Source: Lysobacter antibioticus HS124
GTDB lineage: Bacteria; Pseudomonadota; Gammaproteobacteria; Xanthomonadales; Xanthomonadaceae
Length of the DNA stretch: 36,312 bases
Assembly: GCF_000336385.2 (NCBI RefSeq)
Contig: NZ_HG424495.1
Location: 1 to 36,312, forward strand
Reading direction: 5' to 3'
Both the position numbers and the translations under genes were made by a program. Positions within the stretch are counted from its first letter, which is position 1, and every line of letters starts with the position of its first letter. Shown piece by piece: positions 214 through 28,856 of the stretch. Under the pieces are notes generated by a model. That model was given only the letters and a program-made list of their open reading frames with translations, did not search any database and was not told the origin of the DNA.

Positions 214-3063
214 TCAGTCAGTAACGAACTGCGAGGTGATGGTCATACCGCTCGCCACGCCGGTGCTGAACACCGCTAAGGTATGCATGCCAGGCACAGG
301 CCGGTCGATCAGGATCGATTCGCCGTTGCCTGGCTTGATGGAACGGTACATATACTCGGTCTGGCTTACCCAGTTGCCGGAAGACGGGTAGATGGAAGAC
401 GGCCCCAAGGCATAGAGGTCCGCCTCGCCGGTTCCGCCGCCGAGCGTGATGCGCAGCTGCTTGATGCCTGCGGGAACAGTCACATAGAACGGCGCCCGGT
501 AAGTACCGCTCCACGGAACCGTGGTCGCAGTCCGCCTGCAGTTCTGGCCCAAGCGCCGTGTATCCGGATCCGTGCAAGCGGGCAACTCCGAAACCGTCAC
601 TGATCCCTTCATACTGCGAGAACCGCCGTTGTCGTCGACGACCGTAAGCGTTACTCCATAGGTTCCCGCTGCGGCGAATCGCTTAACGGGCAACAGGCCG
701 GATGCGGTGGTGCCATCGCTGAAAGACCAGGCCTGAGAAGCGATGCTTCCGTCGACATCGGTCGAATAGTCCATGAACTGAGCCGTCAAGCCGCTGCCAA
801 TCCATCGGAACCCCGCGGTCGGAAGCTGATTTCCCGGGCAGCCCGATGCGTTAACCGATCCGACACAAGTCAGCCAATTCTTGAAGTCGACATCGAGCGA
901 GGTGCCGATGTTGTTCATGAAACTGGTGTAACCGCTGTAATTGCCAGGGCGCAGGTAGGACAGAATGGACGTTACCTGTCCAGGCCGCTTCTCGAACATA
1001 TAGCGCACGGCAAGATAGCCCCAGCTATAAACCCGCACATTTCCGCTCTTATAGTCGTTCTGGAAAATGGCGCTCAGCGGATACGTACCCAGCTTGGCTT
1101 CTGCAATTCCTCCGGGCGACCCAACCTTCATGTACTCACGGGACACGTACTCGGCCAAACCCTCGATCCACCATACCGTTTTATATGCCGTAGATGCGCT
1201 GAAGTCACCGTACCGATTGAAACGCCCGTCCAAATAATGGACGTACTCGTGGTTCAGGTTCCATATCGAGAACTTCGGCAGGTCCCATTGCGCTTCGTGC
1301 GCGTAGAAGCGAGCCTGGTTCCCAGAAGCTGAGGGGTCTCCCTCCATCATGAGGCCGCCGTTACTGGTATCGATTTTGAACAGCGGGCCGCCGTAGGTGT
1401 CGTATTGCCTCTTGCTATTGAAGACGATGACCTCTAACGCGCTGTTGTTGTCGTCGGCCACCGGCACGTTGTTCGTCTTCAGCTTGGAATGGAAAAAACT
1501 CTCCTCCCCGGCCAGTTCGGCGCAGGTCGCGGCCAGCTCGGACGCAAGCATCGACTGCGCCCGAATCTTCAAGGTGGGGCTGCATACATGAGTACTGGGG
1601 AGAACCTCGGCCGCTACGATTTCCTTATAGTTACAGGTGCTATACGCGGAGCAATTGGCGGCGTCGTAGTAGCCTACCGCAGCAGCTAACTCCAGCCAGA
1701 TTCCGGCACTCGCCGACCCCGTCGCTGGCGACGATTTCGCCAACAGGCTTTTCACCCGGGACGCTGCTTCGGCCTCGGCAGCGCCGCTGTGCTGCATGAA
1801 GCGCGCCATCTCCCTCGTCGCACTCTGCATCAGATAGTAATAGCTATTGTTATAGAGAACGACGAAATTTCGATCGATCATGCCGTGAAGCGAGGTAATG
1901 ATCGAGGTATCGGTCTGAACGTACTGCCCTAGCTCGCTGCCAGTCTTGTTCCTCTTGAACAAGACTAAGAAGGTGCGGTAGAGCGCATCTCGCATCTTCG
2001 GGTATTGATTCCATGCGTTGCCGTACCGCGCATACATGTCCTTGAAGCTCGCGAGCTTGTACGTTACGGAGTTCGAGCTATCGATCAGGATGAAGTACTT
2101 TTCGAGCACTTCGCCATTGGCATCGTCTACTTTCTTGAAGTTGGCGTTGGCCGAGAACTTATCCAACGCGCTACGAATGGCCGCGGTCAAGCCGGCCCCG
2201 TACTCCCCGACCGAAGGCTTCTGGTAGAACTGCACGTAGTACCCAGCCTGCATGAAGTGCATCAGGTTCAGGATGCCGGTGCTGTTGGTCCCGTCATACC
2301 CGGCCGAATCGCTCGCGATCGCGTTGGCGACAGTCACCATCTTCGATTCCGGGAAGGTCGCTCCCGCAGCCGTTCCGGTCAGGTTGAACAAGGTACTTAA
2401 GCAGTCGATGCTGGTAGCCTTGATCCGCGACACCAGTTCACTGCCGCTTGCGTTTGAGAACTGCGCCGAATCGCAGGTTTCGGTGGCGGTCGTGGTCGCG
2501 GCCAGCTCTGCTCCGGCTCCCGCTGGGCCTTCGGCCCGTTCCGATTCGGCCCGGGCCGCCTCTTCAAGCAGCTTCGAAGGGCGCGAGCGCAGCTCCTGCC
2601 CCGGTTGTAACGGGTGATTGTAGTCGGAAGCCAACCGCACCAGTTCCGGATCCACCAGCGGCCCACGGTCCGTCAGCTCCGTGGTTTCGCGATGGCTGTG
2701 CATCATGCTCAGCTCCATCTCCAACGTGCCTGTCGGGCCGCGGCGAGGATCGAAACGCGCCCGGTCGGGATCGTGCGACGCCCTTTCGCCCGGACCGGTT
2801 CCGTCGCCGGACATACCGTCGCGACGGGGATTCTTTCCAGCGCTTGCGTAAACGGGCCGGTCGGCAGCGTGATGGCTGGGCGCACTATCGACCGTACCAA
2901 CCGACCCTGCGTCGCGCCCCGTCAGCGCTGCGGTTGCGCGCGAAATTGCTGCTATCAGCGCATTGCTTTCGCCGGACGCCCCGCCCCCCATCGTCGAGAG
3001 CGCGGCCACCGCGATTATCGCGGTGCAGGCCGCCACTCTGCCCTTCGTTTTCCCAACTGACAT
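214..3063 (-). CDS. Secreted M9 family collagenase with PKD and PPC domains (copy 1)
   Basis: A zinc metalloprotease of 949 aa predicted to cleave collagen or gelatin outside the cell. A basic, hydrophobic signal peptide covers about residues 1-31. A Ser/Asp/Arg-rich pro-region runs to about 190, then an M9N-type activator region (about 195-480) and the catalytic domain. The zinc motif HEYVH is at 605-609, and the third ligand is most likely E634 in WWIEG, matching the EG glutamate of clostridial ColG/ColH. A PKD fold (about 750-825) and a PPC beta-sandwich (about 850-947) follow; both usually help substrate binding or secretion. The start is fixed by a strong GAGGTGA Shine-Dalgarno just before the ATG. 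It is the last of three tandem paralogues in the same orientation, 270 bp beyond copy 2. Family and active site are clear; substrate range (collagen types, gelatin) is inferred. Confidence 0.93.
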   Translation of the reverse strand: MSVGKTKGRVAACTAIIAVAALSTMGGGASGESNALIAAISRATAALTGRDAGSVGTVDSAPSHHAADRPVYASAGKNPRRDGMSGDGTGPGERASHDPDRARFDPRRGPTGTLEMELSMMHSHRETTELTDRGPLVDPELVRLASDYNHPLQPGQELRSRPSKLLEEAARAESERAEGPAGAGAELAATTTATETCDSAQFSNASGSELVSRIKATSIDCLSTLFNLTGTAAGATFPESKMVTVANAIASDSAGYDGTNSTGILNLMHFMQAGYYVQFYQKPSVGEYGAGLTAAIRSALDKFSANANFKKVDDANGEVLEKYFILIDSSNSVTYKLASFKDMYARYGNAWNQYPKMRDALYRTFLVLFKRNKTGSELGQYVQTDTSIITSLHGMIDRNFVVLYNNSYYYLMQSATREMARFMQHSGAAEAEAASRVKSLLAKSSPATGSASAGIWLELAAAVGYYDAANCSAYSTCNYKEIVAAEVLPSTHVCSPTLKIRAQSMLASELAATCAELAGEESFFHSKLKTNNVPVADDNNSALEVIVFNSKRQYDTYGGPLFKIDTSNGGLMMEGDPSASGNQARFYAHEAQWDLPKFSIWNLNHEYVHYLDGRFNRYGDFSASTAYKTVWWIEGLAEYVSREYMKVGSPGGIAEAKLGTYPLSAIFQNDYKSGNVRVYSWGYLAVRYMFEKRPGQVTSILSYLRPGNYSGYTSFMNNIGTSLDVDFKNWLTCVGSVNASGCPGNQLPTAGFRWIGSGLTAQFMDYSTDVDGSIASQAWSFSDGTTASGLLPVKRFAAAGTYGVTLTVVDDNGGSRSMKGSVTVSELPACTDPDTRRLGQNCRRTATTVPWSGTYRAPFYVTVPAGIKQLRITLGGGTGEADLYALGPSSIYPSSGNWVSQTEYMYRSIKPGNGESILIDRPVPGMHTLAVFSTGVASGMTITSQFVTD

Positions 3064-9823: not shown

Positions 9824-9836
9824 GTATAACGTATAC
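9824..9836. promoter_or_regulatory. Candidate GntR-type operator GTATA-N3-TATAC
   Basis: A perfect inverted repeat, GTATA-ACG-TATAC, overlapping the palindrome ACGTATACGT (9829-9838). The same arms and spacing occur at 19285-19297 across the -10 box of the DapA-family gene. It lies about 545 bp upstream of collagenase 3 and about 170 bp past the end of the beta-helix gene. The local AT-rich patch stands out from its GC-rich surroundings. Operator function is inferred. Confidence 0.45.
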
Positions 9837-10003
9837 GTATCGATATCAGGCACGTCCCGAGTGCTGCAAGACACACTCGAAACCTCCCTCATCGCACCGT
9901 GTCTCCGACCAGGTACCGAGGCCGGCGACCTCGCGCCAAGTCGTCGAATCGCTTCCGTGCTTTCGTCCTGGCGGCCGCCCTGCGCCGCGGGCTGCCGCCG
10001 GGC

Positions 10004-11845
10004 TCAGTTGACCGTGCACGACAAGGTCACCGTTACGCTTGCGCCGGCGACCAGCGTCCCGAGCGCGATGCCGGCATCGAGCGCTGCCAGAGAAATAGGC
10101 GAGACCGGACAGGCGGCACCGCTGCATACGGGAGGCGTCGTACATGTCAGCCCCGTGCGGCTCGCCGCCGGATCGCGCAGTACCGCAGCGATGACCGAAT
10201 TCGTACCGGCGTTGGTCACCACGATGCTGTAGGTGGTGCTTTGGCCGCGGTTGAGCGTGTCGCCTGCCAGATCGCTCGCCCCCGAGGCGGGCGTATTGGT
10301 CTTGCTGATGCGCAGATCGACGGAGGTCGGGCCGCTCAACTCCGAGGTCGCGCCGAACGAGGTGGTGGCGGTCTCCGCGCAGCCTGCATTCTGGCAACGC
10401 GTTGCGGTCATCCGCAGGGTAGCGGGCGCGACTCCGGCGATCGTGCAGCTGCTTGGGATCGTGGCGCTGGGACTGGCGACCGAACACGAGCCCAGCCAAA
10501 CCTGGGCTTCTCCGAACCCCGTGGGGTCCAAGCCACCCGGGTTGTTGTAGAAGTCGATGCGATAGCCATTGGCGTTCGCGGCCGTGTCCAAGGTGAAGTG
10601 CACGGTGGAGCCGACGATCCCAGCCAGTACCGGGAAGTTCTGCAACTGATTCGGCCCCGTGTCCGCGTCGCCGGCATCGTTGGGAGTGACGCCGTTGGCG
10701 CCCAGATCGATGCCGAGCCCACCGTTCCCGGAGAGATTGGTGTTGGCGACGATCGCGTTGTTCCCGGCGGTGGCGCCGGTTGCCTGGACGCCCGCGCCTG
10801 TGTTTCCGGTGATGGTGTTCGCTGTGATGGTGTTCTGAACGACCGACCCCAATGCGGTCCCCACCATCGTTATGCCAGCGCCGCCGTTGTTCGAAATCGT
10901 GTTGTTCTCTATGCGGTTGGCGGCGACTTGAGTGGCGACCGCCAAGTTTCCTCCGTCCATAACGATGCCTGCGCCGAGATTTGCGCTGATCGTGTTGTTG
11001 GAAATCGTGTTGTTCTGCGTGAAGCCCCCCGCTCCGCCGAACTGCGGAATCAATCGGATACCGGCGAGCCTGCTGCCCGAGATGTCGTTGGAACTCACCG
11101 TTACGTTGGAGACGCTGGCCAGGCCGATGCCGAAGTTCGAGCCTCGGATCACGTTGCCGCTTACCGTCGCGTTGTAGCCCGCGATAGAACCGGTGTTATA
11201 GATGCTGATTCCGTAGTTGCCGTTGGTTATCGTGTTGTTCGTCACCGTGCAGTTGTCGCTGTCGAGGCAACGAATGGCGTCGAAACCAGTGCCGGGGCTG
11301 GAAATATCGTTGCCGCTGATGACCATATTGGTCACGCCGCTAGCCGTCACGGCGGGCTGAGCGAAGTTGGTAACGCCGATGTTCAGCAACTGGCTGTTCG
11401 CGGCCGTCGCCGAAAATGAAAGGCCAACGAAGCTCCCCCCGCCTCCGTTCAAGACGATGTCGCCGCCTCCGTTTATCACTACCGTGTCGGTGATGGCCGG
11501 CAGTCCGGGGGCGGTGACGTTGACCGTGCCGGATCCGCTGAAGACGATGGTGTCGTCCACCGTCGTGGTCAGATTCGCGGCCAAGATCGCCGCCCGCAGC
11601 GTCGTGCAGCTGAAGTTGGGGCTGGTGCCCGAACAGGTTCCGGCGACATCGCTCAAGCCTGTGACCGTATAGGTCGCAGCCAGCGCCGCCCCCGCCCAGA
11701 GCGAAAGCGGAATGATCGCCGCCCCGATGCAGACGCCGCGGAAGCAACGGCGACCACGGGAGGAGCCACCGGCGCAAACGTCGGCGCCGTCGCTTACGGT
11801 TGCCGAGCGACGAGTGAGAGAAGCGGGCCGCAAGCGAAAAAACAT
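10004..11845 (-). CDS. Secreted right-handed beta-helix protein with DUF11-like C-terminus
   Basis: A 613-aa exported protein of unknown precise function. The ATG at 11845 is chosen over an in-frame GTG at 11869 because AAGGGAT lies 5-10 nt ahead of it. A long basic N-terminus leads to a hydrophobic segment and an AlaLeuAla-Ala type cleavage site (about residue 53). The mature start TYTVTGLSD, followed by CTTLRAAILAAN, matches the CSLREA-type N-cap of surface beta-helix proteins. The middle (about 100-400) is rich in NNTIS, GNDIS and SNVTVS repeats, typical of PbH1 coils. The last 110 residues resemble a DUF11 module (SKTNTP, TYSIVVTNAG, VTVTLSCTVN). Such proteins can be adhesins or polysaccharide lyases; no lyase active site was recognised. 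It is flanked by peptidase and collagenase genes on the same strand. Confidence 0.85.
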   Translation of the reverse strand: MFFRLRPASLTRRSATVSDGADVCAGGSSRGRRCFRGVCIGAAIIPLSLWAGAALAATYTVTGLSDVAGTCSGTSPNFSCTTLRAAILAANLTTTVDDTIVFSGSGTVNVTAPGLPAITDTVVINGGGDIVLNGGGGSFVGLSFSATAANSQLLNIGVTNFAQPAVTASGVTNMVISGNDISSPGTGFDAIRCLDSDNCTVTNNTITNGNYGISIYNTGSIAGYNATVSGNVIRGSNFGIGLASVSNVTVSSNDISGSRLAGIRLIPQFGGAGGFTQNNTISNNTISANLGAGIVMDGGNLAVATQVAANRIENNTISNNGGAGITMVGTALGSVVQNTITANTITGNTGAGVQATGATAGNNAIVANTNLSGNGGLGIDLGANGVTPNDAGDADTGPNQLQNFPVLAGIVGSTVHFTLDTAANANGYRIDFYNNPGGLDPTGFGEAQVWLGSCSVASPSATIPSSCTIAGVAPATLRMTATRCQNAGCAETATTSFGATSELSGPTSVDLRISKTNTPASGASDLAGDTLNRGQSTTYSIVVTNAGTNSVIAAVLRDPAASRTGLTCTTPPVCSGAACPVSPISLAALDAGIALGTLVAGASVTVTLSCTVN

Positions 11846-12215
11846 ATCGATATCCCTTGGAAAGGCCACAGACCGGCGCTCTAAGCCCGGGCAGCGTGAC
11901 TCCCCGAAGAAGCACTGGCCGGCGCCGACGTCGGTCCGACGCAGTGCTGTTGAATGGACAATAGAAATGCCTGTGACGGGCCGGCCGGCTCGATTAAGCC
12001 AACGTTAAGCTTGGTGAGATTGCCGCTCTGCGGGCCCGTACAGCAGCTAAAGACGGGCTCTGTCCCCTGTCGGCACGAGTGCGAACCACCGCAGGCCGCC
12101 CGGCAAGCGAGGCGACGCCGGAAACCGTTTTCGAGGCAGAACCGGGCGGCGCAGGCGCGCGGCCGCAAAGGAATCCGACGACTCCACGCATGCCGAGCCT
12201 TCGCATAACCTGCCC
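11846..12215. other. Intergenic region upstream of the beta-helix gene
   Basis: A 370-bp gap after the S9 peptidase. It contains GGCCGGCC and AACGTT/AAGCTT palindromes near 11980-12012, but no -35/-10 pair or terminator that I would defend, and no coding region. Confidence 0.4.
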
Positions 12216-14513
12216 TTACATGGATCGATCCCGTTCTTGCCTTGCGGCCCGACCATCGGGCTCCGGATCCAACAACTCTCTCTTGAAGAAGCTCCGGACC
12301 AGATCGTTGAATGCCGGGCCCGTGATCTGGTGTCCGACGTTGGGCAAAACCACGGTCTCGTGCGCCTTCCCAGCGCGGTCCAATGCGCGCGAGAGCGCCA
12401 GCGTGCTCTCCAACGGAACGTTGTCGTCGATGTCGCCATGCACGAGCAGCAGTTTTCCTTGCAGCTTGTCGGCATAAGTGAGATTGGAGTTGCGGGCCCA
12501 ATCGGCATCGTCCGCCAGCCCCATCCAGGCCTCCGGCCACCAGGCCTTGTCCAGCCGCAGGTCGTGGTTCCCGGACTGGGAAACGCCGACTTTGAATACG
12601 TCCGGACGATGGGCCATGAACCGGAACGCATCGTAGCCGCCGGCCGATCCGCCGATGACCCCGACCCGATCCAGATCGAGATAGGGATATTTGTCGCGCA
12701 TCGCCCTCAAGACGCGCACGTGATCTTCGATGCCCACCCCGGTAAGGTTCCTGTAAGAGGGCAAGCGGAATGCACGGCCCCGCTGCGACGTTCCGCGTGC
12801 GTCGATGGTGACCACCACCGCGCCCAGCTGGGCGAGCGCCGTCGCCATGCCCGACACATTGCGTTCGTAGTTCTCGCGGAACCGGTGCGTGTTCGGACCG
12901 GTGTAGAGATGATCGATCACCGGATAACGGCGGCTTGGATCGAACCGGCTGGGCCGGTAGATCATCGCGTACAGCGTGGTCTTGCCGTCTCCGGCCAGGG
13001 TTTCGAATACCTCCGGCGGCGTGAACCCGCTGGCCGTCATCGCGCTCGGATCGGCGCGTCCAAGCTCCATCGCTATCCGCCCATCCGCCGTACTGCGCAG
13101 CAAGGTCCGGGTCGGCTGAGTCGGACTCGACATCCGGTCGATGAACCAGCGCCCGTCTTCGGACACGGTCACTCGATGATCGAGAGGCTCGGGCGTCAGA
13201 TTGACGATCGAGCCGTCCAGCCCCACCCGATACAGCATTCTGAAATAGGGATTCACGCCGGTCTCGCGACCGACGCCGCTCACCAGCACGTCGTCGTCGG
13301 AGACGTGCAACACCTCGCTCACTTCCCAGGCGCCCTGGGTAAGGCGCCTGCCGCCCTCGACCGGGTCGCCGTTCCGGATCAGGTACAGTTGGGCCCAGCC
13401 GCTGCGCTCGGAGATCAGCAGCGCACCGCCCAACGCGGGCGCCGACCGGATCGAAGTGGCGGTCGCAGTCACGTTCGGCTGCATCGCCTCACGGATGCGA
13501 GTCACGGCCTTGCCGCTGGCCGGGTCCACCTCGATCAGCTTCAATTCGCCGTAGCCTCGTCGCGTCCACTGGTAGTGAACACGACCGCCTTGCCAACTCA
13601 GAGACGGCGATATCGGAAACAACAATTCCTGTGCCGGCACATCGAGCAGCTTCGTGGTCCGGGACGCGACATCGATCAGAAGCGGACGGAACAGGGGCAA
13701 TTTCGCCGCGCCAGCGGTCGGATAGACGTAACGGAATCGCTTGGGGCCGCCGCCGCCCGGCGGCCGAGGCTGTACGCCTTCGTGCAAAGTCGCCTGGTTG
13801 CGGTCGAGACGGTGGGTCAACAGGGTCGACGAATCCTGCGACCAGTACGCCTCGACCGTCATCGGCGGCGACTCCATGCCCGCCTTCACTTGATAGCCCA
13901 GTCGCGGATAATTAATTCCGTATCTGCGGTCATGGCTGCCGTCGGAGGTCAGGGGCACTTCCCGCCCTGAGCCCGTGTCCACCAGCACCAGGTTGAAGTC
14001 CCGCGAGATCACGCGAAACCTCCCATCCGGCGAGAGCACGCCTTGAACGCGGGCATCGGGCTCCCTGGATGCTTTTCCGCTCGCCAGGTCGTATCTCCAG
14101 CGCTTGTCGCCTACCGAGACTATCAACGCACCGCTTTTGCCGAGATAGTCCTGGATGCCGACAGCCTCGTTCCTGTCGGAGAAGGCTCCGGCCGCGGCGA
14201 GGGACGCGCGCAGCGCGCCGTCGCCGACCAGCACCCTGCTCGACTGCGTCTGCGGACTCGCCAGCCGGACTTCGCCACTGCGCTTGGGCCCTTTGTGGAA
14301 GACGACGTCGCTGCCGCCGCCGGCAAAAATCGCGCCCATGTCCAGATCGACGATCCATTCCCCTTCCCGCTCGGGCACGTATTTGTCGAACTCGGCATAG
14401 CGCAGCGCCCAGGCGTCGGCATCGCCCGGAGTTCCGGCGGATACGGGCGACAGGGCGAGCAACGCAAGCGCCGCGGCTACGGACCTCGGGTCGAAGCTGG
14501 CGATGAATCGCAT
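12216..14513 (-). CDS. Secreted S9 family prolyl-oligopeptidase/DPP-IV-like peptidase
   Basis: A 765-aa serine peptidase, probably exported to the periplasm or outside the cell. The ATG at 14513 is preferred over one 60 nt upstream because GAGGA lies about 8 nt ahead of it and a signal peptide (about 1-26, ending SPVSAGTPG) begins there. A beta-propeller of DPP-IV N-terminal type fills about 60-500. The alpha/beta-hydrolase domain follows, with nucleophile Ser623 in GGSAGGYDAF, Asp696 in HGDIDDNV and His728 in NVGHQ. DPP-IV-like enzymes remove Xaa-Pro dipeptides or cut after proline, which suits collagen fragments. It lies 153 bp behind the TonB receptor on the same strand, with a large hairpin between them. 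A broader S9 specificity, such as acyl-aminoacyl peptidase, is not excluded. Confidence 0.9.
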   Translation of the reverse strand: MRFIASFDPRSVAAALALLALSPVSAGTPGDADAWALRYAEFDKYVPEREGEWIVDLDMGAIFAGGGSDVVFHKGPKRSGEVRLASPQTQSSRVLVGDGALRASLAAAGAFSDRNEAVGIQDYLGKSGALIVSVGDKRWRYDLASGKASREPDARVQGVLSPDGRFRVISRDFNLVLVDTGSGREVPLTSDGSHDRRYGINYPRLGYQVKAGMESPPMTVEAYWSQDSSTLLTHRLDRNQATLHEGVQPRPPGGGGPKRFRYVYPTAGAAKLPLFRPLLIDVASRTTKLLDVPAQELLFPISPSLSWQGGRVHYQWTRRGYGELKLIEVDPASGKAVTRIREAMQPNVTATATSIRSAPALGGALLISERSGWAQLYLIRNGDPVEGGRRLTQGAWEVSEVLHVSDDDVLVSGVGRETGVNPYFRMLYRVGLDGSIVNLTPEPLDHRVTVSEDGRWFIDRMSSPTQPTRTLLRSTADGRIAMELGRADPSAMTASGFTPPEVFETLAGDGKTTLYAMIYRPSRFDPSRRYPVIDHLYTGPNTHRFRENYERNVSGMATALAQLGAVVVTIDARGTSQRGRAFRLPSYRNLTGVGIEDHVRVLRAMRDKYPYLDLDRVGVIGGSAGGYDAFRFMAHRPDVFKVGVSQSGNHDLRLDKAWWPEAWMGLADDADWARNSNLTYADKLQGKLLLVHGDIDDNVPLESTLALSRALDRAGKAHETVVLPNVGHQITGPAFNDLVRSFFKRELLDPEPDGRAARQERDRSM

Positions 14514-14608
14514 TGACGGACGTTCCTCAGCTATTGGATTGCTTCGGCCGACTCGCAGCACGAAAGCGCTCATGCGCTCCGGTGAACTGAGAACGGCCCC
14601 ACGAGACT

Positions 14609-14651
14609 GCCGTTCCGCAAGGAGGCTCGGAACGCCTCCCCGCGGAACGGC
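14609..14651 (-). terminator. Large compound hairpin between TonB receptor and S9 peptidase genes
   Basis: GCCGTTCCGC (14609-14618) pairs perfectly with GCGGAACGGC (14642-14651). Inside, GGAGGC (14621-14626) pairs with GCCTCC (14634-14639), with 2-nt bulges on both sides. It begins 16 nt after the receptor stop codon. There is no U-tract, so it may terminate in part or protect the 3' end of the upstream message and set unequal expression of the two genes. Confidence 0.6.
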
Positions 14652-14666
14652 CGAGCTTTCGCTCGC

Positions 14667-17600
14667 TCAGAACCTCTGGGTGTACTTCAGGTAGACGAAG
14701 CGACCGACATCGAAGCCGCCGTAGTAGGAAACGTTCGAGCTCGGCTGCGTGTACATGACCGGTCCATAGCGCTTGAAGACGTTGTTGACGCCCAGTGCGA
14801 CCGATGCGTCCCAGGGGGTGTTCCAGCGGAACTGGACATCGTTGAAAGTCGTCGACCCGTGGCGGTTCCGGCGCTGGATCTGCGTGACCGTCCCCTGCCC
14901 CGGCAGGCTCCCGGTCGGCGCCAGGCGGATTTCGCTGCATTCCAAGTGGGGATCGCTCACGCCGGCGATGAAGTAAGTGCAGCCTTCCTTCATGGAGGAG
15001 TAATAGCGGGCGGACCAGCTGATTCCGAAGTGACCCCAATCCCAACCGATGTTCAGGTTGGAGCGAACCCGGAACGTGCTGGTGACGCCGACGTCCGAGA
15101 TAGGAATGCGCGGGTTGTCCGTGCTGACGAAGTAATCGCGCGACGTATAGGTGCTGTTGGACGTGACGACGAAGTCGCCGTATCCGGTCTTCTTGCGATA
15201 GGTGACATCGACATCGAACCCTTCGACCTTGCGGAAGCCGGCGTTGATGCTGGAGAACTTCAAGCTATTGACGTACCCCAGCGCCGGGTCGCGGGTGAAC
15301 GACGAACCCGCGGACGCTTCGCAGCGGCTCTGGATGCCCAGAACGTAGCAGTCCGCCAGCATGTTGGTCGGGCTGTCGGCGACGATCGTCTGCGAAATAC
15401 GCATCTTCCACCAGTCCACCGCGATGTTCAGCCCGTCGAGGAAATCCGGGCTCCATACCGCCCCGATCGTCTGCGACTTCGACACCTCCGGGGTCAAGCC
15501 GGGGTTCGACTCCGACCTGAACGCCACCGGCGTCTGCGCATTCGGCGCTCCCGCCGGCACCAGCCCCTGCGCGAGCTGGCGGAAGGTATTGGCCTTCGCG
15601 CCCATGTCGCGAACGCAATTGGCGCGTGTGGTCGGGTTGCTGCTCGAGCTGCCGAAACTGGTGTCGCAGGGATCGGTGAAAGCCGAGAACGTGTCCGACC
15701 CGCCACCGTACAGGTCGGCGATGGTCGGGGCGCGGAAGCCGTCGTTCACGGTCGCACGCAGCAGCAACGACGCCACCGGGCGCCACTTCAAACCGAACTT
15801 GTTGTTGGTGGTCTGGCCGAAGGTATCGTAGTCGGAGAAGCGGGTGGCGATATTGAGCGTCAACTCCTTGGCGAAAGGCTTGTCGGCCAGAATCGGAATC
15901 TCCGTTTCGGCGTAGAACTCATTCACGCTGTACCGTCCGCCGGTGGGGCCGGCCGCCAGCGCGGTCGTCGTTCCCGCGATCGCCGCCGCCGAGGGCGTGA
16001 AGGTGCCGGACTCCACCCGGCGTTCGATGCCCGCGGCCAGCCCGACCGGGCCGGCAGGCAGGTCGAACACGGTGGTTGAGACGTTGGCCGATACCACCTT
16101 GGTCTTGGTCTCGCCGCGCGCGGTCTCCGGCTGCGACAGGAACGCCTGCAGTTCCGGATTCCCGGTCAGACCGCCTTCGCCGATCACGCCGTATCCCAGG
16201 AACGGGTTGAACGGCACGCAATCGCTGAACGGGATCGGCGCGGCCGCCGTGCCGCACTGGACTCGCCCCTGCGCGTTGAGGAACGAAGGACCCACCGCCA
16301 TCTGCGTGTTGGGCGTATTGAGGTTCCCGTAGCCCACATGGCGCGACTTGTTGTCGTTGTACAGAACGCCGACATCCCAATCCACATAGCGATCGCGCCA
16401 TTGGAAGCTGCCCTCCAATGCGCTCGAAACCCGCAGCGTCTTCAGGTTGCCTTCGGTGATCCGGGGCATTTCCCACGTGCGGCGCCACCAGCTCCTGATG
16501 GGCGCGGAGGTCGGGTTGAAGTAGCTCTGGGCCGACATGCCGGGCACCGTCGGAGCGAACGACGCGGCCTGCATGGGCATGCCGGCGGTGCTGCGGGCGT
16601 TGTCCCGCTCGCCGTACAACAGGTTGGTCCGCCAGCTGAGGCTGTCGCTGAAGCGGTACCGGCCGTCGACGAAGAGCGACTTGGACTTCAACGGGGTCCG
16701 CAGATCCGTCTGGGCGTTCGGATTGCTCTTGTGCCGGCTCGATCCGGGCACGCACCCGTTGATCGAGGCGCCAGCCGATACGGCGCAGCTGCCGGTGTTT
16801 ACGTCTTGACGAATATAGTCCGCCGGCGTGCGCGGATTGCCGCCGTCGCGCAGGACCACCCGAGTCCCGTTGGGAATGCCCGGGATGCGGTTGGTGGCCG
16901 AGGTCACGAAACCGCCGCCGGCGCTGACGGTAGACCAACCGTCCGTTGGATGCAGATTGGAACGAGGATACGCGCTGAATTCCCGGTCGCTAGCAGCCAC
17001 CCTGTCCTCGTCGCGGATTTCGCCCCCCACTGCAATCGAGAAGCGCTCGCCGGTATGCCCATAGGAGAAGTTGGCGTTGGTGATTCCGCCATCGCCCTGG
17101 CTGTATTGGCCGATGTATCCGCCAATGCTGGCGCCGTTGAAGTCGGCGCGGGTGATGATGTTGATGACGCCGGAAATCGCATCGGAGCCGTAGATGGAGG
17201 ACGCGCCGTCCTTGAGCACTTCGATGCGTTCCACCATCGCCGCCGGAATCGACGAGATGTCGGCCAAGCCCCCGGTGGTCACGCCCAAGCGTCGACCGTT
17301 GAGCAAGACCAAAGTACGCGCCGCGCCGAGATTGCGCAGACTCACGTACGACCCGCCGACCGCTTCGCCCGACAACAGCGGAGAGGCTCGACTCGCCGGC
17401 GGCGCGCCGGTCGCCGACACCGCCTGGAGAATGTCCGACACCGATTGGAAGCCCTGCTTCTCGATACTCTGCCTGTCGATGACGGTCACCGGCTGCGCCG
17501 TCTCCATGTCGACTTGCCGCAATCGGGTCCCGGTCACCTCCACTCGATTGACCGTCACCGGCGCCTTTTCGGCTTCTACGCCGCTGTTTCCGCCTTGCTC

Positions 17601-17690
17601 GGCTGCGTAACCCACGCAGGAGAAGACGGAAACGCCCGAGGCCAGCGCGACTACGATGGCGTCGCGGAGCGGATTGGTTTGCATGAACAT
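14667..17690 (-). CDS. TonB-dependent outer-membrane receptor (peptide-locus copy)
   Basis: A 1007-aa outer-membrane active transporter. The signal peptide covers about residues 1-29 (cleavage after GYA). The plug domain (about 50-175) contains RVEVTGTRL, SLRNLG, LVLLNGRRL and the SIYGSDAISGVINIIT core. A 22-strand barrel follows and ends in the aromatic YTQRF, as needed for BAM-dependent assembly. AGGGGGT lies just before the ATG. Long Xanthomonad receptors of this type often sit beside peptidase genes, and this one precedes an S9 peptidase in the same orientation, which suggests import of proline-rich peptides. The substrate cannot be read from the sequence. No sigma/anti-sigma pair of the FecI/FecR type is next to it. 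Confidence 0.92.
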   Translation of the reverse strand: MFMQTNPLRDAIVVALASGVSVFSCVGYAAEQGGNSGVEAEKAPVTVNRVEVTGTRLRQVDMETAQPVTVIDRQSIEKQGFQSVSDILQAVSATGAPPASRASPLLSGEAVGGSYVSLRNLGAARTLVLLNGRRLGVTTGGLADISSIPAAMVERIEVLKDGASSIYGSDAISGVINIITRADFNGASIGGYIGQYSQGDGGITNANFSYGHTGERFSIAVGGEIRDEDRVAASDREFSAYPRSNLHPTDGWSTVSAGGGFVTSATNRIPGIPNGTRVVLRDGGNPRTPADYIRQDVNTGSCAVSAGASINGCVPGSSRHKSNPNAQTDLRTPLKSKSLFVDGRYRFSDSLSWRTNLLYGERDNARSTAGMPMQAASFAPTVPGMSAQSYFNPTSAPIRSWWRRTWEMPRITEGNLKTLRVSSALEGSFQWRDRYVDWDVGVLYNDNKSRHVGYGNLNTPNTQMAVGPSFLNAQGRVQCGTAAAPIPFSDCVPFNPFLGYGVIGEGGLTGNPELQAFLSQPETARGETKTKVVSANVSTTVFDLPAGPVGLAAGIERRVESGTFTPSAAAIAGTTTALAAGPTGGRYSVNEFYAETEIPILADKPFAKELTLNIATRFSDYDTFGQTTNNKFGLKWRPVASLLLRATVNDGFRAPTIADLYGGGSDTFSAFTDPCDTSFGSSSSNPTTRANCVRDMGAKANTFRQLAQGLVPAGAPNAQTPVAFRSESNPGLTPEVSKSQTIGAVWSPDFLDGLNIAVDWWKMRISQTIVADSPTNMLADCYVLGIQSRCEASAGSSFTRDPALGYVNSLKFSSINAGFRKVEGFDVDVTYRKKTGYGDFVVTSNSTYTSRDYFVSTDNPRIPISDVGVTSTFRVRSNLNIGWDWGHFGISWSARYYSSMKEGCTYFIAGVSDPHLECSEIRLAPTGSLPGQGTVTQIQRRNRHGSTTFNDVQFRWNTPWDASVALGVNNVFKRYGPVMYTQPSSNVSYYGGFDVGRFVYLKYTQRF

Positions 17691-18112
17691 CGTTTACCCC
17701 CTGTGATACCGGCCCCGCATCCGGAGCCTGTGATGGAGTGGATCGAAAGGCGGGTTTCCGACCTCTTGCAGCGGTACGTCCTGCGCCGTGCGGTTGAAAA
17801 CGGATCGCCACGTCGGCCAGGGGCGCGACATGACGACCGGAGAAACCCGGGTACACCGGTAGAGGCCGGCCGCGATCGCCGCGACCGCCCTCTTTCCGTC
17901 TGATGACCGTCCATGGGCGAATTGCTCGCTTTCCGCATGTCTTTCGGTTATGCGCGCAACTCCCAGCCCTCGTTCGCGGCCGCCGTGACGGATTCCGCGG
18001 AGCACGCTCGCGTCCGACGATGCGATCCGGCGCCTCGGCGCCGGCCCGAGCCGATTGCGGCCCGGTCGTATCCGCGAAGCTGGCGATAACTTAGGCACGG
18101 CGGTTCTCGTCC
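17691..18112. other. Intergenic region upstream of the peptide-locus TonB receptor
   Basis: A 422-bp gap that presumably carries the promoter of the receptor-peptidase pair. A looser version of the collagenase leader motif (CTGTGATACCGGC, 17701-17713) lies 11 nt from the ATG. Nothing else is recognisable; short open frames here lack ribosome sites and family resemblance. Confidence 0.4.
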
Positions 18113-19075
18113 TTAATTCGGACTTGCCGGCACGCGCGCGACTCGGCGCGACTTGGCCGCCGATCGCAGCAGCAGCAGGGCCGTGTACAGCGCCACCGAG
18201 ACCACGCCCCAGCGCAGTGCCGCCAACGGCAGTTGCTTGACCACGTACGCCGCCAGCATCACGGCGGGAACGCCGCCGATCGCCAGCCCAATCACCACTT
18301 TCAGATCGATGCGCCGGGAGCGGACGAATCCCATGCCACTGATCGGCATCAGGAAGGCGCAGGCTCCCATCATCACGGGGAAGGCGGCAGTCGGGCTCAG
18401 CCCGAGCAGGCTCAGAATCACCAGCGAAGGCGCGTACAGGCCGATGCCGAAGCTCATCAGCATGCCCAGTACGAGATGCGCCATCACGGCGACCGCGAAC
18501 TTCGCGCCGCCGAGAGCGAACGCGTCGCCGCCGGCCGGCAACAGATCGAGATTGGTCGCCGCATACAGAGCCGCGGCGATCAGCATCGCCAGGCCGACCA
18601 TCCATTGCACATGACGCGTAGCCACTTTGGTGGCCAGCTGCGTACCGATCAGCGCACCGTTCACGGCCGCTGCGATGCAACCCAGAAGCAGCAGCGGGTC
18701 GATGTATATCAAATGGATGAAGACCAGCGCCTGCACCAGCGTCGGCAACGCATGGCCGGCGTTGAGGACGGCAGGCATGTAGCTGTCGGGCACGAGCTTG
18801 CGCAGCTTCAGATACGCCGTCGTCGGCGCGAAGGAGCCGATGCCCAGCGTATCGAAGAAGTTCGTCGCCGCGCCCAATCCGATCGCTTCATAGTTCGGGC
18901 GCAGTTCGGATCGTTGATAAGCGGTCGCCGTCAAGACGATCAGGAACAATACGGCCAGCAAGCCCAGCGCAGCGAACAGAAGGATCGTCGTCACGGCCCA
19001 GCTCCGGCGCTCGCCGAGCGCATGCCCGGACCAGGAGCGCAGCCACGCCGAAGCGGCGACTTCCGCAACCGCCAT
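18113..19075 (-). CDS. TSUP family (TauE/SafE) membrane permease
   Basis: A polytopic inner-membrane protein of 320 aa with about eight hydrophobic segments and the family signature TNFFDTLGIGSFAPTTA, repeated in degenerate form in the second half (AFPVMMGACAFLMPISGMGF). TSUP members move sulfite, sulfonates or small organic acids; this one cannot be assigned. The ATG at 19075 has no good Shine-Dalgarno and adds 27 residues without family resemblance. A GTG at 18994, behind GGAG at proper spacing and directly before the first membrane helix (TTILLFAALG), is the better start. It diverges from the DapA-family gene; the shared upstream region suggests co-regulation, perhaps for uptake or export of a metabolite of that pathway. 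Confidence 0.85.
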   Translation of the reverse strand: MAVAEVAASAWLRSWSGHALGERRSWAVTTILLFAALGLLAVLFLIVLTATAYQRSELRPNYEAIGLGAATNFFDTLGIGSFAPTTAYLKLRKLVPDSYMPAVLNAGHALPTLVQALVFIHLIYIDPLLLLGCIAAAVNGALIGTQLATKVATRHVQWMVGLAMLIAAALYAATNLDLLPAGGDAFALGGAKFAVAVMAHLVLGMLMSFGIGLYAPSLVILSLLGLSPTAAFPVMMGACAFLMPISGMGFVRSRRIDLKVVIGLAIGGVPAVMLAAYVVKQLPLAALRWGVVSVALYTALLLLRSAAKSRRVARVPASPN

Positions 19076-19262
19076 GACGGTTGCGGCAGGTGATCGAGCG
19101 CGATCGAACCCAGCCTGCGCTCGCGCTTACCGTCGCACGTCGACGGATTCCGGCCGCGTGCGTGGCGGAGCGATGTCCCCCCCGGCACCAGGCGTACAGC
19201 CTCGTGCTTGGCCAGAACCGATTCCCCTTCACGGATACGCAAAGTGAGCCCCTCGCCGACGC

Positions 19263-19291
19263 TTGACACTAAAATTTGTATCTTGTATACG
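19263..19291 (+). promoter_or_regulatory. Sigma-70 type promoter of the DapA-family gene
   Basis: A perfect -35 box TTGACA (19263-19268), 17-bp spacer, and -10 box TATACG (19286-19291, four of six consensus). The expected start of transcription is near 19298, giving a leader of about 30 nt before the ATG at 19327. Confidence 0.7.
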
Positions 19292-19297
19292 ATATAC
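19285..19297. promoter_or_regulatory. Candidate GntR/FCD operator overlapping the -10 box
   Basis: The perfect inverted repeat GTATA-CGA-TATAC covers the -10 element, a position suited to repression. TTGTATAC-type sites are common for FCD-subfamily GntR regulators, and such a regulator is encoded one gene downstream. The same 13-bp pattern is found at 9824-9836. Confidence 0.6.
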
Positions 19298-19299: not shown

Positions 19300-19311
19300 T
19301 GACAGCTGTCA
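19300..19311. promoter_or_regulatory. Perfect palindrome TGACAGCTGTCA in the DapA-family leader
   Basis: A 12-bp perfect palindrome between the predicted transcription start and the AAAAGG ribosome site (19314-19319). It could be a second operator, possibly for a different regulator, or a small RNA stem. Confidence 0.4.
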
Positions 19312-19326: not shown

Positions 19327-20247
19327 ATGATTCGCGATGTCTCTCTATGGCGCGGCGTGGTGCCCGCGGCGACGACTCAGTTCGCCACGGACATGTCGGT
19401 CGATATCGACGCCACGCAACGCGTCCAAGACGCGTTGATCCGCGACGGCGTCCACGGGCTGATAGCGATCGGTACGGTCGGAGAGAACAACTCGCTGGAA
19501 CCGGACGAGAAAATCGCGGTTCTCGCAGCGGCGGTAGAAGTGGCCGCCGGGCGGGTGCCCGTCATCGCAGGCGTCTGCGAACTGACCACGGCACGTGCGG
19601 TCGCATTCGCCCGGGCCGCCGAGGACATAGGCGTATCGGGACTGATGGTCTTGCCGGCGATGGTCTACGTACCGACGGAAGCCGAACTGGTCGCGCACTT
19701 CCGCGCGGTGGCGACCAGCACCTACTTGCCGGTCATGCTCTACAACAATCCCCCGGCCTATCGGGCCGAGGTCACGATGCGCACCCTGGCCGCCCTCGCG
19801 GACCTAAAGAACGTCGTCGCGCTGAAGGAAAGCACGCCGGACCCTCGTCGCTTTACCGATATACACAACGCCTTCGGCGATCGTTACGCGCTGTTCGCCG
19901 GACTGGACGACATCGCCCTGGAGGGGCTGCTGCTGGGCGCCCGCGGCTGGGTTTCCGGGCTGACCAACGCGTTCCCGCAAGAATCGCTGGCGCTGTGGAA
20001 AGCGGTGCAACGCGGCGACCTGGCTCAAGCCTTGATCATCTACCGCTGGTTCATGCCCCTGCTCCATCTCGATGCGGCGCACGACTTGGTGCAGGCCATC
20101 AAGCTCGCCGAAACCATCATGGGCCGCGGCAGCGAGCGGGTACGCATGCCGCGCATGCCGTTGACGGGAGCGCGCTACAACGAAGTCAAGCGCTTGGTGG
20201 AAACGGCCGCGGCGACGCGCGCCTGCCTGTCCGATGTCGTGGCCTGA
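19327..20247 (+). CDS. Dihydrodipicolinate synthase (DapA) superfamily lyase/deaminase
   Basis: A 306-aa class I aldolase-type TIM barrel that forms a Schiff base with its substrate. Seen: GTVGENNSL (49-57) in place of the GTTGE loop, Tyr139 in MLYNNPPAY and catalytic Lys167 in VALKEST. AAAAGG lies 7 nt before the ATG. True DapA is normally encoded apart from collagenases and lacks a GntR partner. In proteobacterial hydroxyproline gene clusters a DapA-family enzyme is the 1-pyrroline-4-hydroxy-2-carboxylate deaminase, typically beside a GntR/FCD regulator. That role fits a collagen-degrading locus, but the other pathway enzymes (epimerase, D-hydroxyproline dehydrogenase, semialdehyde dehydrogenase) are not in the window. 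Alternatives are N-acetylneuraminate lyase-like, keto-deoxy-sugar acid aldolase or dehydratase enzymes. Confidence 0.9.
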   Translation: MIRDVSLWRGVVPAATTQFATDMSVDIDATQRVQDALIRDGVHGLIAIGTVGENNSLEPDEKIAVLAAAVEVAAGRVPVIAGVCELTTARAVAFARAAEDIGVSGLMVLPAMVYVPTEAELVAHFRAVATSTYLPVMLYNNPPAYRAEVTMRTLAALADLKNVVALKESTPDPRRFTDIHNAFGDRYALFAGLDDIALEGLLLGARGWVSGLTNAFPQESLALWKAVQRGDLAQALIIYRWFMPLLHLDAAHDLVQAIKLAETIMGRGSERVRMPRMPLTGARYNEVKRLVETAAATRACLSDVVA

Positions 20248-20393: not shown

Positions 20394-21083
20394 ATGACCA
20401 TTGTGAACCGCACTCTTTCCGAGCAGGCTTTCCAGATCATCCGCGAGCGGATCCTGTCGAATCGAATGCCGCCGCTGACCCTGCTCCGGCAGGAGGCGCT
20501 GGCGGCCGAACTCGGCATCAGCAAGATTCCCCTGCGCGAGGCGCTGACCCGATTGGAGCAATACGGATTGCTTCGCTCTAGCATCAATCGCGGTTACTAC
20601 GTTCCGCCCTTGACGATCGCGGAAGCCGAGGAGGTTTTCGCTCTGCGGGTGAAGATCGAGCCCGAGGCCGCGGCTCAAGCCTGCCTGGAAGCCAGCGACG
20701 ACGAGAGCGAGACGGCGAAAACCGCTTTGGCGGCGCTGGAGGCCATATCCGGGGTCGATCCCCAGCAGACCGTGGCCTTCAATCGCGCATTCCATTTGGC
20801 GTTGGTTCGGCCGGGAAACCGCCAGGTCACGTATTTGCTGGTGGAACGCCTGCACGTGTTGGCCGAGCGCTATGTTCATATGCATCTCGAGCCCGTCGGA
20901 CGCGACGCCAGGGCCCTGCGCGAGCATAGGGACTTGTTGGCCGCCTGGCTGGCGCGCGACGCCAGGAACGTAAGCCTTCAGCTGACCCAGCACATCGTGC
21001 TTACTCTCCACGACCTTCGCCAGCAATTGCTCGAGAACGAAACCATTATCAAGTCGAGCGTGCCGCCCAGACCGAACGATTGA
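20394..21083 (+). CDS. GntR family transcriptional regulator, FCD subfamily
   Basis: A 229-aa DNA-binding regulator. The winged helix (about 5-70) shows the GntR signature: LSEQAFQIIRERILSNRM, then LRQEALAAELGISKIPLREAL and GYYVPP. The all-helical FCD effector domain (about 80-212) keeps the metal- or ligand-binding histidines in FNRAFH, EHRDLL and LTQHIV. FCD regulators usually respond to organic acids and repress a neighbouring catabolic gene. Here the neighbour is the DapA-family gene 146 bp upstream, whose promoter is overlapped by a GTATA-N3-TATAC repeat. The same repeat near the collagenases suggests a wider regulon. The ligand may be a hydroxyproline-pathway intermediate, an inference only. 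Confidence 0.92.
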   Translation: MTIVNRTLSEQAFQIIRERILSNRMPPLTLLRQEALAAELGISKIPLREALTRLEQYGLLRSSINRGYYVPPLTIAEAEEVFALRVKIEPEAAAQACLEASDDESETAKTALAALEAISGVDPQQTVAFNRAFHLALVRPGNRQVTYLLVERLHVLAERYVHMHLEPVGRDARALREHRDLLAAWLARDARNVSLQLTQHIVLTLHDLRQQLLENETIIKSSVPPRPND

Positions 21084-25000: not shown

Positions 25001-25064
25001 TGGCGGAATAGCGGGATGGACGGTCGGCGCGTTGACGGCGCGGGCGGCGGCTAGCGGGCAACAT
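22044..25064 (-). CDS. TonB-dependent outer-membrane receptor (GalNAc-locus copy)
   Basis: A 1006-aa outer-membrane transporter. A long basic N-terminus leads to a signal peptide ending ASFAAA (about residue 41). The plug domain (about 60-180) has RVEVTGSNIRRLD, LRGLG, LVLLNGRRLSYYG and AVYGTDAVAGVINVITK. The barrel ends in SFTVGYKF. AGGAG lies 10 nt ahead of the ATG. It follows the GH31 gene by 140 bp on the same strand, and both back onto the aga operon, so it probably imports GalNAc or GalNAc-containing oligosaccharides or glycopeptides released by that enzyme. GalNAc loci of other proteobacteria also include such receptors. It is related to, but clearly diverged from, the receptor at 14667-17690. 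Confidence 0.93.
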   Translation of the reverse strand: MLPASRRPRRQRADRPSRYSATPLSLALAAALLGHASFAAAQDGSADVDSAGGSDKTTELSRVEVTGSNIRRLDVETASPVQVISKQDIENMGARTLLQVLDNLPAARPAQQDSRSLFTGSDGASQANLRGLGAQGTLVLLNGRRLSYYGAPAGFQTQFVNIDAIPAAAIERMEVLTDGASAVYGTDAVAGVINVITKRNYQGAEVSATTDMSSRIDSYGEHQASITAGFGDLNEDRYNVYGSFNFYRRDAIPLSDFYDKRPDQYYVNNPNYLKNLRLGTGSKPGEFNPGTYFAFNPRTGARVQEAAPGCNNVLTGEAAGPRCIWQTWMNNEIDAGAQTERMTGYVNAHFLLGETTEAFAELTYTDIDLRANGGTPRAFSTTTGNPTSWFSRDTGTTVNQFRYPFLGPNNEYNRASPELKALMGGVVGLQYLLQDAGGNYFGQRNTDKSYRGLAGLRGSFGDWNWETAFATAGTHSVTYQTVNVNLEGFRKAFGPFTIDPGTGRVIISDHPAYKFGEISEANAALLREAYPTFDIQSWTRLHTLDGKIEGPLANLPGGEMRAAFGFNISRETFYTPGNEDAANGLITQQGGSWFDGKRNTYALFAETVAPLTDKLELDAALRIDKYPNFNANLAPKIGLKYQVLPELLLRGTYSEGFRAPSLAEAGTGGVFAQLGGYRDEVRCAETNAIANLLRQSRRSGDVDLGNSLLNADCSRTVARMTQPNQDLKPEKAKIATLGFVFEPLDWLSVSADYWFIYRRNEIAAPDYSKAEDILSSTRSPITDSDRAAVAAVAAMCADPASGVRCPGTLPGYSVGNVASVVGQYKNKGRTLVDGFDIDARSRFSLGEWGSLNIGLAATIARRKQAYLDDENGWYYGNTIGYYGNPRLRATVNADWNYRQFTTSFFVNYVGHTKWGWDRIDAEDNNEETCTAGHLALPEAQCDGVPSWWTANLSLAWRPTEKLNLGVTVKNLFDRQPFYDPNSFLGDSSDYASIFGRSYSFTVGYKF

Positions 25065-25204
25065 CGGAACTCTCCTGGCAGGATCTGCGGCGCGGATGGC
25101 GGACGAAAGGCAACAGCGATCCCGGGCCGCGGCCGGACGGCCGCAGTCGGTATGGCGGGGGGAGGAGCGGTGTTACGTTTTCGGTGCGGCGGGGTCGAGT
25201 GGGT

Positions 25205-28558: not shown

Positions 28559-28606
28559 CTTGCCCCCAGCGCCCGCTCGGCGGGCCTTCGTAATGTGTTG
28601 CGACCG

Positions 28607-28636
28607 ACTCTAGGGCAGGGTTTTGAAACCTGTCAA
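28607..28636 (-). promoter_or_regulatory. Promoter of the GH31-receptor operon
   Basis: On the minus strand TTGACA (28631-28636) is followed after 18 bp by TAGAGT (28607-28612, four of six consensus). The expected start is near 28600. A GAAAG pentamer (28643-28647) lies 6 bp upstream of the -35 box. Confidence 0.6.
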
Positions 28637-28642
28637 TAAACT

Positions 28643-28842
28643 GAAAGCAAAAAGGAAGAATTTTTACATTGAAACGAAAGATTGTGCATTGCAATACTTT
28701 CTAATAATCCTCAAAACCCCTGTTAAGCCCGCCACGAAAGCCGAATCCGCCTTAACTTTCGCTTTTGTCCCCGGGCCGGCCGCAACGAAGCCCAACCCGA
28801 CGTTTTCTTTTGTTTTACTTTCGATAATTGACTTTTCGAAAG
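28643..28842. promoter_or_regulatory. AgaR operator array: seven CTTTC/GAAAG pentamers
   Basis: GAAAG at 28643, 28676, 28736 and 28838; CTTTC at 28697, 28756 and 28818 (first base of each). Six form inverted pairs with start-to-start spacing of 21, 20 and 20 bp (28676/28697, 28736/28756, 28818/28838), about two helical turns. Multiple CTTTC copies in varied arrangements are the known pattern for AgaR of GalNAc regulons in proteobacteria, and an AgaR-like DeoR regulator is encoded at 32341-33123. Confidence 0.75.
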
Positions 28843-28856
28843 AAAACACAGATCGT
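28828..28856 (+). promoter_or_regulatory. Candidate promoter of the aga operon
   Basis: TTGACT (28828-28833) with a 17-bp spacer to GATCGT (28851-28856), a poor -10 match. The GAAAG at 28838-28842 sits inside the spacer, so a bound repressor would block it. The exact -10 is uncertain. Confidence 0.4.

What the first reader, a model, noticed from the sequence alone, without database searches (positions are those of the whole stretch)
9824..19297. The same 13-bp inverted repeat sits on the DapA-family promoter and upstream of the collagenases
GTATA-CGA-TATAC at 19285-19297 covers the -10 box of a promoter with a perfect TTGACA. GTATA-ACG-TATAC at 9824-9836 lies in the 724-bp non-coding region before the collagenase trio. 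Both have identical 5-bp arms and 3-bp spacing in GC-rich DNA, and a GntR/FCD regulator is encoded next to the first site. This would tie extracellular proteolysis and a catabolic step to one effector.
Basis: partly seen in the sequence, partly recalled or inferred. Interest (0 to 1): 0.7.

Follow-up and report, generated by a model that had tools for sequence, protein, structure and literature searches.

The report
Hydroxyproline-regulator operators at collagenase genes
The two short DNA palindromes are most likely binding sites of a hydroxyproline-sensing (HypR-type) repressor through which a Lysobacter soil bacterium would switch on secreted collagenases together with an enzyme for using hydroxyproline, the signature amino acid of collagen.

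Summary
Exact GTATA-N3-TATAC occurs 4 times in the 5.14-Mb genome. The host is a Lysobacter. In each of the 13 other congeners (of 18 searched) that hold the GntR/FCD regulator it occurs exactly once, between the regulator and a divergent M9 collagenase; the 5 without the regulator lack the site and any M9 collagenase over the Pfam cut-off.

The operator is better described as a 16-bp dyad, ATAtCGTATACGaTAT, centred on GTATAC; the 13-mer is an off-centre part of it. The dyad core lies within 200 bp upstream of dapA in 49 of 49 loci where a regulator orthologue stands near a dapA at least 60% like the window's; 47 of these also hold Pro_racemase and DAO genes. A matrix trained without Lysobacteraceae ranks 19277 and 9823 first and second in the window.

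So the regulator is HypR-type, the DapA-family gene very probably hypD, and the collagenase-trio site a weaker HypR operator. Collagenases in HypR regulons are already known (predicted in Shewanella, shown in Streptomyces). New here: in Lysobacter a HypR paralogue stands with a collagenase while the core hyp cluster lies beside an AraC-type gene, and in this species the operator lies before all four collagenase units. Binding, effector and direction of control are inferred.

The parts
19280..19295 (.). HypR-type operator (16-bp dyad) at the hypD promoter; the reported 13-mer is 19285-19297
   Evidence: 25.1 bits, best position of the window, with a matrix from 45 non-Lysobacteraceae sites; same place before dapA in 49 of 49 relatives' loci
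9826..9841 (.). Probable HypR-type operator upstream of the collagenase trio; the reported 13-mer is 9824-9836
   Evidence: 16.4 bits, second best position of the window; 13-mer identical to the one between R1 and its collagenase on C22; kept in the conspecific genome
19263..19291 (+). Promoter-like TTGACA, 17 bp, TATACG; the -10 lies inside the operator
   Evidence: not listed by the consensus scan
19327..20247 (+). DapA-family gene, probably hypD (1-pyrroline-4-hydroxy-2-carboxylate deaminase)
   Evidence: PF00701; below the dapA equivalog cut-off; 60% or more identical genes stand with Pro_racemase and DAO in 47 of 49 loci
20394..21083 (+). GntR/FCD regulator R2, HypR-type
   Evidence: PF00392 and PF07729; tree; 68% identical to R1 on C22
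6445..9279 (-). M9 collagenase, first of the trio (nearest to the operator)
   Evidence: PF01752 and PF08453
3334..6180 (-). M9 collagenase, second of the trio
   Evidence: PF01752; no operator-like site in the 264-bp gap before it
214..3063 (-). M9 collagenase, third of the trio
   Evidence: PF01752; no operator-like site in the 270-bp gap before it
18113..19075 (-). TauE/SafE-like membrane protein, divergent from hypD across the operator; possible regulon member
   Evidence: PF01925; position only
14667..17690 (-). TonB-dependent receptor downstream of the divergent gene; possible peptide uptake
   Evidence: PF00593, PF07715; function inferred
12216..14573 (-). S9 peptidase, DPP-IV-like; possible X-Pro peptide cleavage
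   Evidence: PF00326, PF00930; function inferred

Best explanation
Both sites are operators of HypR-type GntR/FCD regulators. Shown by sequence: this regulator family, the dyad ATAtCGTATACGaTAT, hydroxyproline-catabolism genes and, in Lysobacteraceae, M9 collagenases go together. Inferred: without hydroxyproline the regulator sits on the -10 of the hypD-hypR unit and upstream of the collagenases and keeps them low. When hydroxyproline or a product of it enters the cell the FCD domain lets go of the DNA, collagenases are made, collagen is cut, and its peptides feed the hydroxyproline pathway, a self-reinforcing loop. In the genus one HypR paralogue (R1) stands with a collagenase; the window species also has a second one (R2) with hypD, and the operator lies before all four of its collagenase units.
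For: Exact site once per genome and at the R1-collagenase gap in 13 of 13 congeners with the regulator, 0 in 5 of 5 without; M9 over the cut-off in the same 15 of 20 genomes. Dyad core within 200 bp upstream of dapA in 49 of 49 loci, 0.03 expected; 47 of 49 also have Pro_racemase and DAO. Matrix from 45 non-Lysobacteraceae sites puts 19277 and 9823 first and second in the window; best site reached 16.4 bits in 33 of 1000 Markov windows, second best in 0 of 1000. Sequence model of 41 of those sites: best hit in 13 of 13 congeners is the R1 site, none in the 5 without. All four collagenase units of the genome have a site of 16.2 bits or more. Regulators of Lysobacteraceae are sister to those of Alteromonas and Shewanella (92/85). 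HypR regulons with collagenases are in print (PMC5343134 section 11; PMC6608401 passages).
Against: The model did not list either window site at E up to 10. The trio site has 3 mismatches to the dyad, a class with 30 places in the genome (36 in all against 18 for the control). At 1 mismatch the 13-mer is no more frequent than its control in 18 of 18 congeners. Two second collagenases (G017, G005) have no site. Five of the 31 regulator loci without dapA show no site of 15 bits or more. The core hyp cluster of the genome has no site. In the tree collagenase-side regulators do not form one group. No binding data.
Confidence: 0.8

Rival explanations
1. The hypD site is a real operator, but the trio site is a chance or decayed match in a region of lower G+C and has no role.
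For: 16.4 bits only; best site of a random 36-kb window reaches this in 33 of 1000; outer right half does not fit the dyad; 544 bp from the start codon; no promoter listed there.
Against: Its 13-mer equals that of the R1-collagenase gap, only 4 exact copies exist in the genome, it lies in the one gap upstream of the trio, and R1 sites are also far from their collagenase start (379-444 bp in the 5 loci where the start was read). Kept in the conspecific genome, which is weak evidence as the strains are close.
Confidence: 0.2
2. The regulator answers to proline or proline-containing peptides rather than hydroxyproline, so the regulon is one of general proline-rich protein use.
For: HypR regulons of other Proteobacteria include putA and proline peptidases (PMC5343134, section 11); a DPP-IV-like S9 peptidase lies near hypD in the window.
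Against: 47 of 49 dapA loci carry the Pro_racemase and DAO expected of hydroxyproline use; 4-hydroxy-L-proline is the inducer in Sinorhizobium (stated in PMC5343134).
Confidence: 0.12
3. A different, unlinked regulator with a similar GTATAC-centred operator binds the sites, and the adjacency to this regulator is incidental.
For: FCD regulators often use short GT/AC palindromes (the TKGT/ACMA motif quoted in PMC6608401).
Against: Regulator and exact site are together present in 15 and together absent in 5 of 20 genus genomes, and the dyad follows regulator orthologues across other families.
Confidence: 0.05

Closest known systems
HypR regulon of Shewanella and other Alteromonadales (Leyn et al. 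2016, PMC5343134; passages and section 11 read)
   Same: GntR-family HypR, hyp genes, autoregulation in many genomes, and three secreted collagenases (colA1-3) predicted in the regulon; a Shewanella orthologue found here (L156, 54% identical) has the same dyad core before dapA
   Different: Collagenases there are part of the hyp regulon; in Lysobacter R1 stands with a collagenase and the core hyp cluster has no site. Their motif drawings could not be seen, so sameness of the operator is not checked against print
HypR of Streptomyces coelicolor (PMC6608401; abstract and passages read)
   Same: FCD repressor of hyp genes including a DapA-like deaminase and Pro_racemase, and of an M9 collagenase; its own site covers a -10 region; three metal-site histidines with the same spacing as H134, H178, H200 here
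   Different: Motif CTNTGC(A/C)ATGTCAC, unlike ATATCGTATACGATAT; no clear symmetry; distant organism
HypR of Sinorhizobium meliloti (White et al. 2012, known only through PMC5343134)
   Same: GntR-family repressor of hyp genes with 4-hydroxy-L-proline as inducer
   Different: No collagenase mentioned in what I read

Membership tests
HypR (GntR/FCD regulator of hydroxyproline use) | GntR winged helix plus FCD domain | tested here: met
   PF00392 and PF07729 over cut-off
HypR (GntR/FCD regulator of hydroxyproline use) | Orthology with regulators of hyp clusters | tested here: met
   Lysobacteraceae clade 100/96, sister to Alteromonas and Shewanella 92/85; R2 unresolved inside the clade
HypR (GntR/FCD regulator of hydroxyproline use) | Operator before hypD | tested here: met
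   25.1 bits at 19277; 49 of 49 relatives' loci
HypR (GntR/FCD regulator of hydroxyproline use) | Full hyp set (epimerase, oxidase, deaminase, dehydrogenase) in the neighbourhood | tested here: not met
   Window has only the deaminase-type gene; tblastn with Pro_racemase and Aldedh of L135 gave no convincing match. Relatives have the set. Leyn et al. note that operon layout varies
HypR (GntR/FCD regulator of hydroxyproline use) | Release from DNA by hydroxyproline | not testable with these tools
   needs protein
HypD (1-pyrroline-4-hydroxy-2-carboxylate deaminase) | DHDPS fold family with Schiff-base Lys and Tyr motif | tested here: met
   PF00701; YNN.P and KES stretches kept in 6 of 6 correctly framed rows; the roles of these residues are recalled
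HypD (1-pyrroline-4-hydroxy-2-carboxylate deaminase) | Substrate and activity | not testable with these tools
   needs assay
DapA (lysine biosynthesis) | NCBIfam equivalog cut-off | tested here: not met
   TIGR00674 177.7 bits, cut-off 206.15
M9 collagenase | M9 and M9_N domains, HExxH and downstream Glu | tested here: met
   H586, E587, H590 and E615, E619 invariant in the 6 collagenases of the genome. Collagen cleavage not tested

The most novel reading that the evidence does not exclude
In Lysobacter a HypR paralogue has been split off from hydroxyproline catabolism and made a dedicated collagenase switch with one strong operator in most genomes, while the hyp pathway itself passed to an AraC/PAS-type regulator. 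In the window species this switch, joined by a second HypR with hypD, has spread to a dispersed collagen-degradation regulon: all four M9 units, a distant M9-like secreted protein without a Pfam family, and a 524-aa protein with an HEGYPGHH motif.
Probability: 0.55. Interest if true: 0.55.

Novelty: new variant of a known kind. Interest (0 to 1): 0.45.

Why it matters
It turns a hunch about two repeats into a testable regulon, with one operator rule that predicts which secreted proteases of Lysobacter should respond to collagen breakdown. It proposes a function (HypR) for a regulator that NCBIfam models match only below cut-off and a function (hypD) for a DapA-family gene. It also suggests how a catabolic regulator can become a switch for an extracellular enzyme.

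Tried and rejected
Considered and rejected: chance repeat. A dispersed repeat element, since the flanks of the four own sites differ. A terminator, since the scan lists none at either site. The 5-3-5 repeat as the binding unit, since columns outside it that were not used to choose the sites are also conserved (14 to 16 of 17 rows at positions 14, 16, 17 and 18) and the 16-bp dyad fits relatives. Lysine-biosynthetic DapA (below cut-off).

Led nowhere: the first genome-contig scan with one protein found no relative. No relic of a lost Aldedh or Pro_racemase gene was found in the window. Profile comparison of the 976-aa M9-like protein with collagenases gave only a weak match over 84 columns (probability 39, E 3e-4); no Pfam match and no PDB match at E up to 0.1. 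My gene caller used G+C by codon position, so gene edges outside the window are approximate. In one search the row for the C10 DapA was read in a wrong frame and is ignored. PWM and model were trained on overlapping sets (45 sites; 41 distinct), so searches are not independent of each other.
Full report
Observation. Exact GTATA-N3-TATAC occurs 4 times in the 5,144,029-base genome, its reversed control 0 times. The other two places are C22:7610 and C28:33161. The conspecific genome G100 also has four exact sites, three of them within 27.2 kb, including the counterparts of both window sites.

Where the other copies are. The window regulator (R2) has a 68% identical paralogue R1 at C22:7837-8478, 214 bp from the C22 site. 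On the other side of that site, divergent, is an M9 collagenase. The C22 13-mer is identical to the one before the collagenase trio.

Host genus. 

Footprint in the genus. Of 20 genus genomes (own and conspecific included) 15 have an exact site. The 13 that are neither own nor conspecific have exactly one each, between the regulator and a divergent M9 collagenase. The 5 without the regulator at E 1e-30 (G010, G011, G012, G013, G015) have none. The reversed control occurs once in each of 4 of the 20 genomes. M9 matches over the Pfam cut-off occur in the same 15 genomes; four of the other 5 have only matches below it and one has none. At up to one mismatch the pattern exceeds its control in the own and conspecific genomes (8 to 3, 7 to 4) but in none of the 18 others, so in congeners only the exact form carries a signal.

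What the operator is. Seventeen site contexts (13 congeners, 4 own) show conserved columns beyond the 13-mer, giving ATAnCGTATACGnTAT. A scan of named genomes with the regulator alignment found 132 relatives and kept the best 80, from Lysobacter, Sphingomonas and relatives, Caulobacter, Alteromonas, Shewanella, Duganella and others (five of the 80 are G genomes already counted). In 49 of 80 there is a dapA at least 60% identical to the window's; 49 of 49 have GTATAC within 200 bp upstream of its extrapolated start, 47 of them at 29 to 54 bp (the others 99 and 132), against 0.03 expected per locus; the window site is at 42 bp. 47 of the 49 also have Pro_racemase and DAO matches. Of the other 31 loci, 7 have an M9 collagenase, 11 none of the genes sought, and 26 a matrix score of 17 or more somewhere in the locus; five (L154, L170, L172, L185, L200) do not reach 15.

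Test with a foreign matrix. A matrix from the 45 non-Lysobacteraceae sites (41 distinct) gives, in the window, 19277 first (25.1 bits) and 9823 second (16.4). In 1000 Markov windows the best site reached 25.1 in 0 and 16.4 in 33; the second best reached 16.4 in 0. A sequence model of the 41, run over the 20 genus genomes (in 11 of them only 150 of the first-look candidates were scored), has the R1-collagenase site as best hit in 13 of 13 congeners with regulator and no hit in the 5 without. In the own genome it listed the C3 and C44 sites but neither window site up to E 10. The plain dyad pattern with up to 3 mismatches finds 36 places in the own genome (1 exact, 5 with two, 30 with three) against 18 for the control; the trio site is among the 30. 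So the trio site rests on its exact 13-mer and its position rather than on the dyad alone.

Identity of the genes. In G061, of another family of the order, DAO, DapA (70% identical to the window's) and Pro_racemase stand near GntR/FCD (41%) and DUF885, and the matrix gives 27.0 bits at L061:3388 beside the dapA start. Lysobacter psychrotolerans L135 has DAO, site, dapA (80%), Pro_racemase, Aldedh, GntR/FCD, and L144 of the same strain has a second regulator beside a collagenase, as here. These are hydroxyproline-catabolism genes as named in PMC6608401. The window keeps only the hypD-type gene and hypR. The only Pro_racemase of the genome over the cut-off is on C10, with DAO, Pyr_redox, Aldedh, a 45% DapA and an AraC/PAS gene, and no site there within 2 mismatches of the 13-mer.

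Tree. 97 regulator rows: 27 Lysobacteraceae rows form one clade (100/96), sister to ten Alteromonas and Shewanella rows (92/85). R1 falls in an 18-row clade of genus regulators (97/93; some rows duplicate each other). R2 is unresolved. Collagenase-side regulators are not one group: L134 and L143 group with the hyp-cluster regulators L135-L137 and L140 (95/94), and L144 stands alone. The pairing with collagenases therefore arose more than once, or the hyp link was lost more than once.

Reach in this species. Six M9 genes, taken as four units with the trio as one (gaps 264 and 270 bp without a site). Sites: C22 19.2 bits; C1 21.4, 238 bp from the ATG; trio 16.4, 544 bp; C39 16.2, about 230 bp. 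Further: C28 22.0 before a 524-aa protein with HEGYPGHH; C3 26.8 before a 976-aa secreted protein with HEMAH and EGLAE; C44 23.9 before an X-Tfes-type gene. In G017 and G005 such a site lies between a homologue of the 976-aa protein (80%) and an X-Tfes-type gene, in G008 between a C1-type collagenase and an X-Tfes-type gene. Over the 20 genus genomes 22 of 24 M9 units have a site of 16 bits or more (18 of 20 with one strain of the own species); the two without are second collagenases of G017 and G005. In 443 kb of Lysobacter DNA scanned no score of 15 or more lies elsewhere, but much of it was fetched because of a hit.

Mechanism. At hypD the dyad covers the -10 of TTGACA-17-TATACG, as expected of a repressor. 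At R1 loci the site is 157-315 bp from the regulator start in 12 of 13 congeners (1033 in G001) and 379-444 bp from the collagenase start in the 5 loci where it was read, so collagenase promoters may lie far upstream, or control may differ. Repression, hydroxyproline as signal and collagen as source are inferred from known HypR proteins.

Known or new. HypR regulons with collagenases are predicted in Alteromonadales (PMC5343134, passages and section 11 read), and a collagenase is repressed by HypR in Streptomyces (PMC6608401, passages read); Shewanella HypR also in PMC3223726 (passages read). I found no paper on a Lysobacter case: Lysobacter+collagenase+GntR 0 papers; Lysobacter+collagenase+hydroxyproline 2, judged unrelated from the listing; collagenase+hydroxyproline catabolism+GntR 2, the two above; ATCGTATACGAT 0. 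RegPrecise could not be consulted, so the operator may already be recorded there. Verdict: a new variant of a known kind.

Noticed in passing
L125:2652-5582 (own C3); homologues L233:6660-9605, L236:6900-9845: Secreted 976-aa protein with HEMAH and EGLAE, weakly like the M9 N-terminal region, no Pfam family, with a strong operator upstream; a possible distant collagenase relative.
   Followed up: partly
L043:9470-11044 (own C28): 524-aa lipoprotein-like protein with HEGYPGHH, no Pfam family over cut-off and no PDB match, about 300 bp downstream of an exact site.
   Followed up: partly
L232:5208-6452, L233:4769-5995, L234:7010-8140, L236:5162-6427: X-Tfes-type (type IV secretion effector-like) genes stand beside HypR-like sites in four genomes; whether they belong to the regulon is open.
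   Followed up: no
window 19300-19311: TGACAGCTGTCA, a perfect 12-bp palindrome between the operator and the hypD start codon; perhaps a second regulatory site.
   Followed up: no
window 22044-34226: TonB receptor, GH31 with NPCBM and F5/8C domains, SIS, GatZ/KbaZ-like and amidohydrolase genes: looks like an amino-sugar (perhaps GalNAc) utilisation cluster; the substrate is a guess.
   Followed up: no
L050 (G001 C1): In this congener the site is 1033 bp from the regulator start instead of 157-315 bp.
   Followed up: no
L043 and L044, left of the window in the genome: StcE-like/reprolysin metalloprotease, beta-helix protein (67-69% like window 10004-11869) and M61 peptidase genes around the C28 site; with the window they form a long protease-rich region.
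   Followed up: partly
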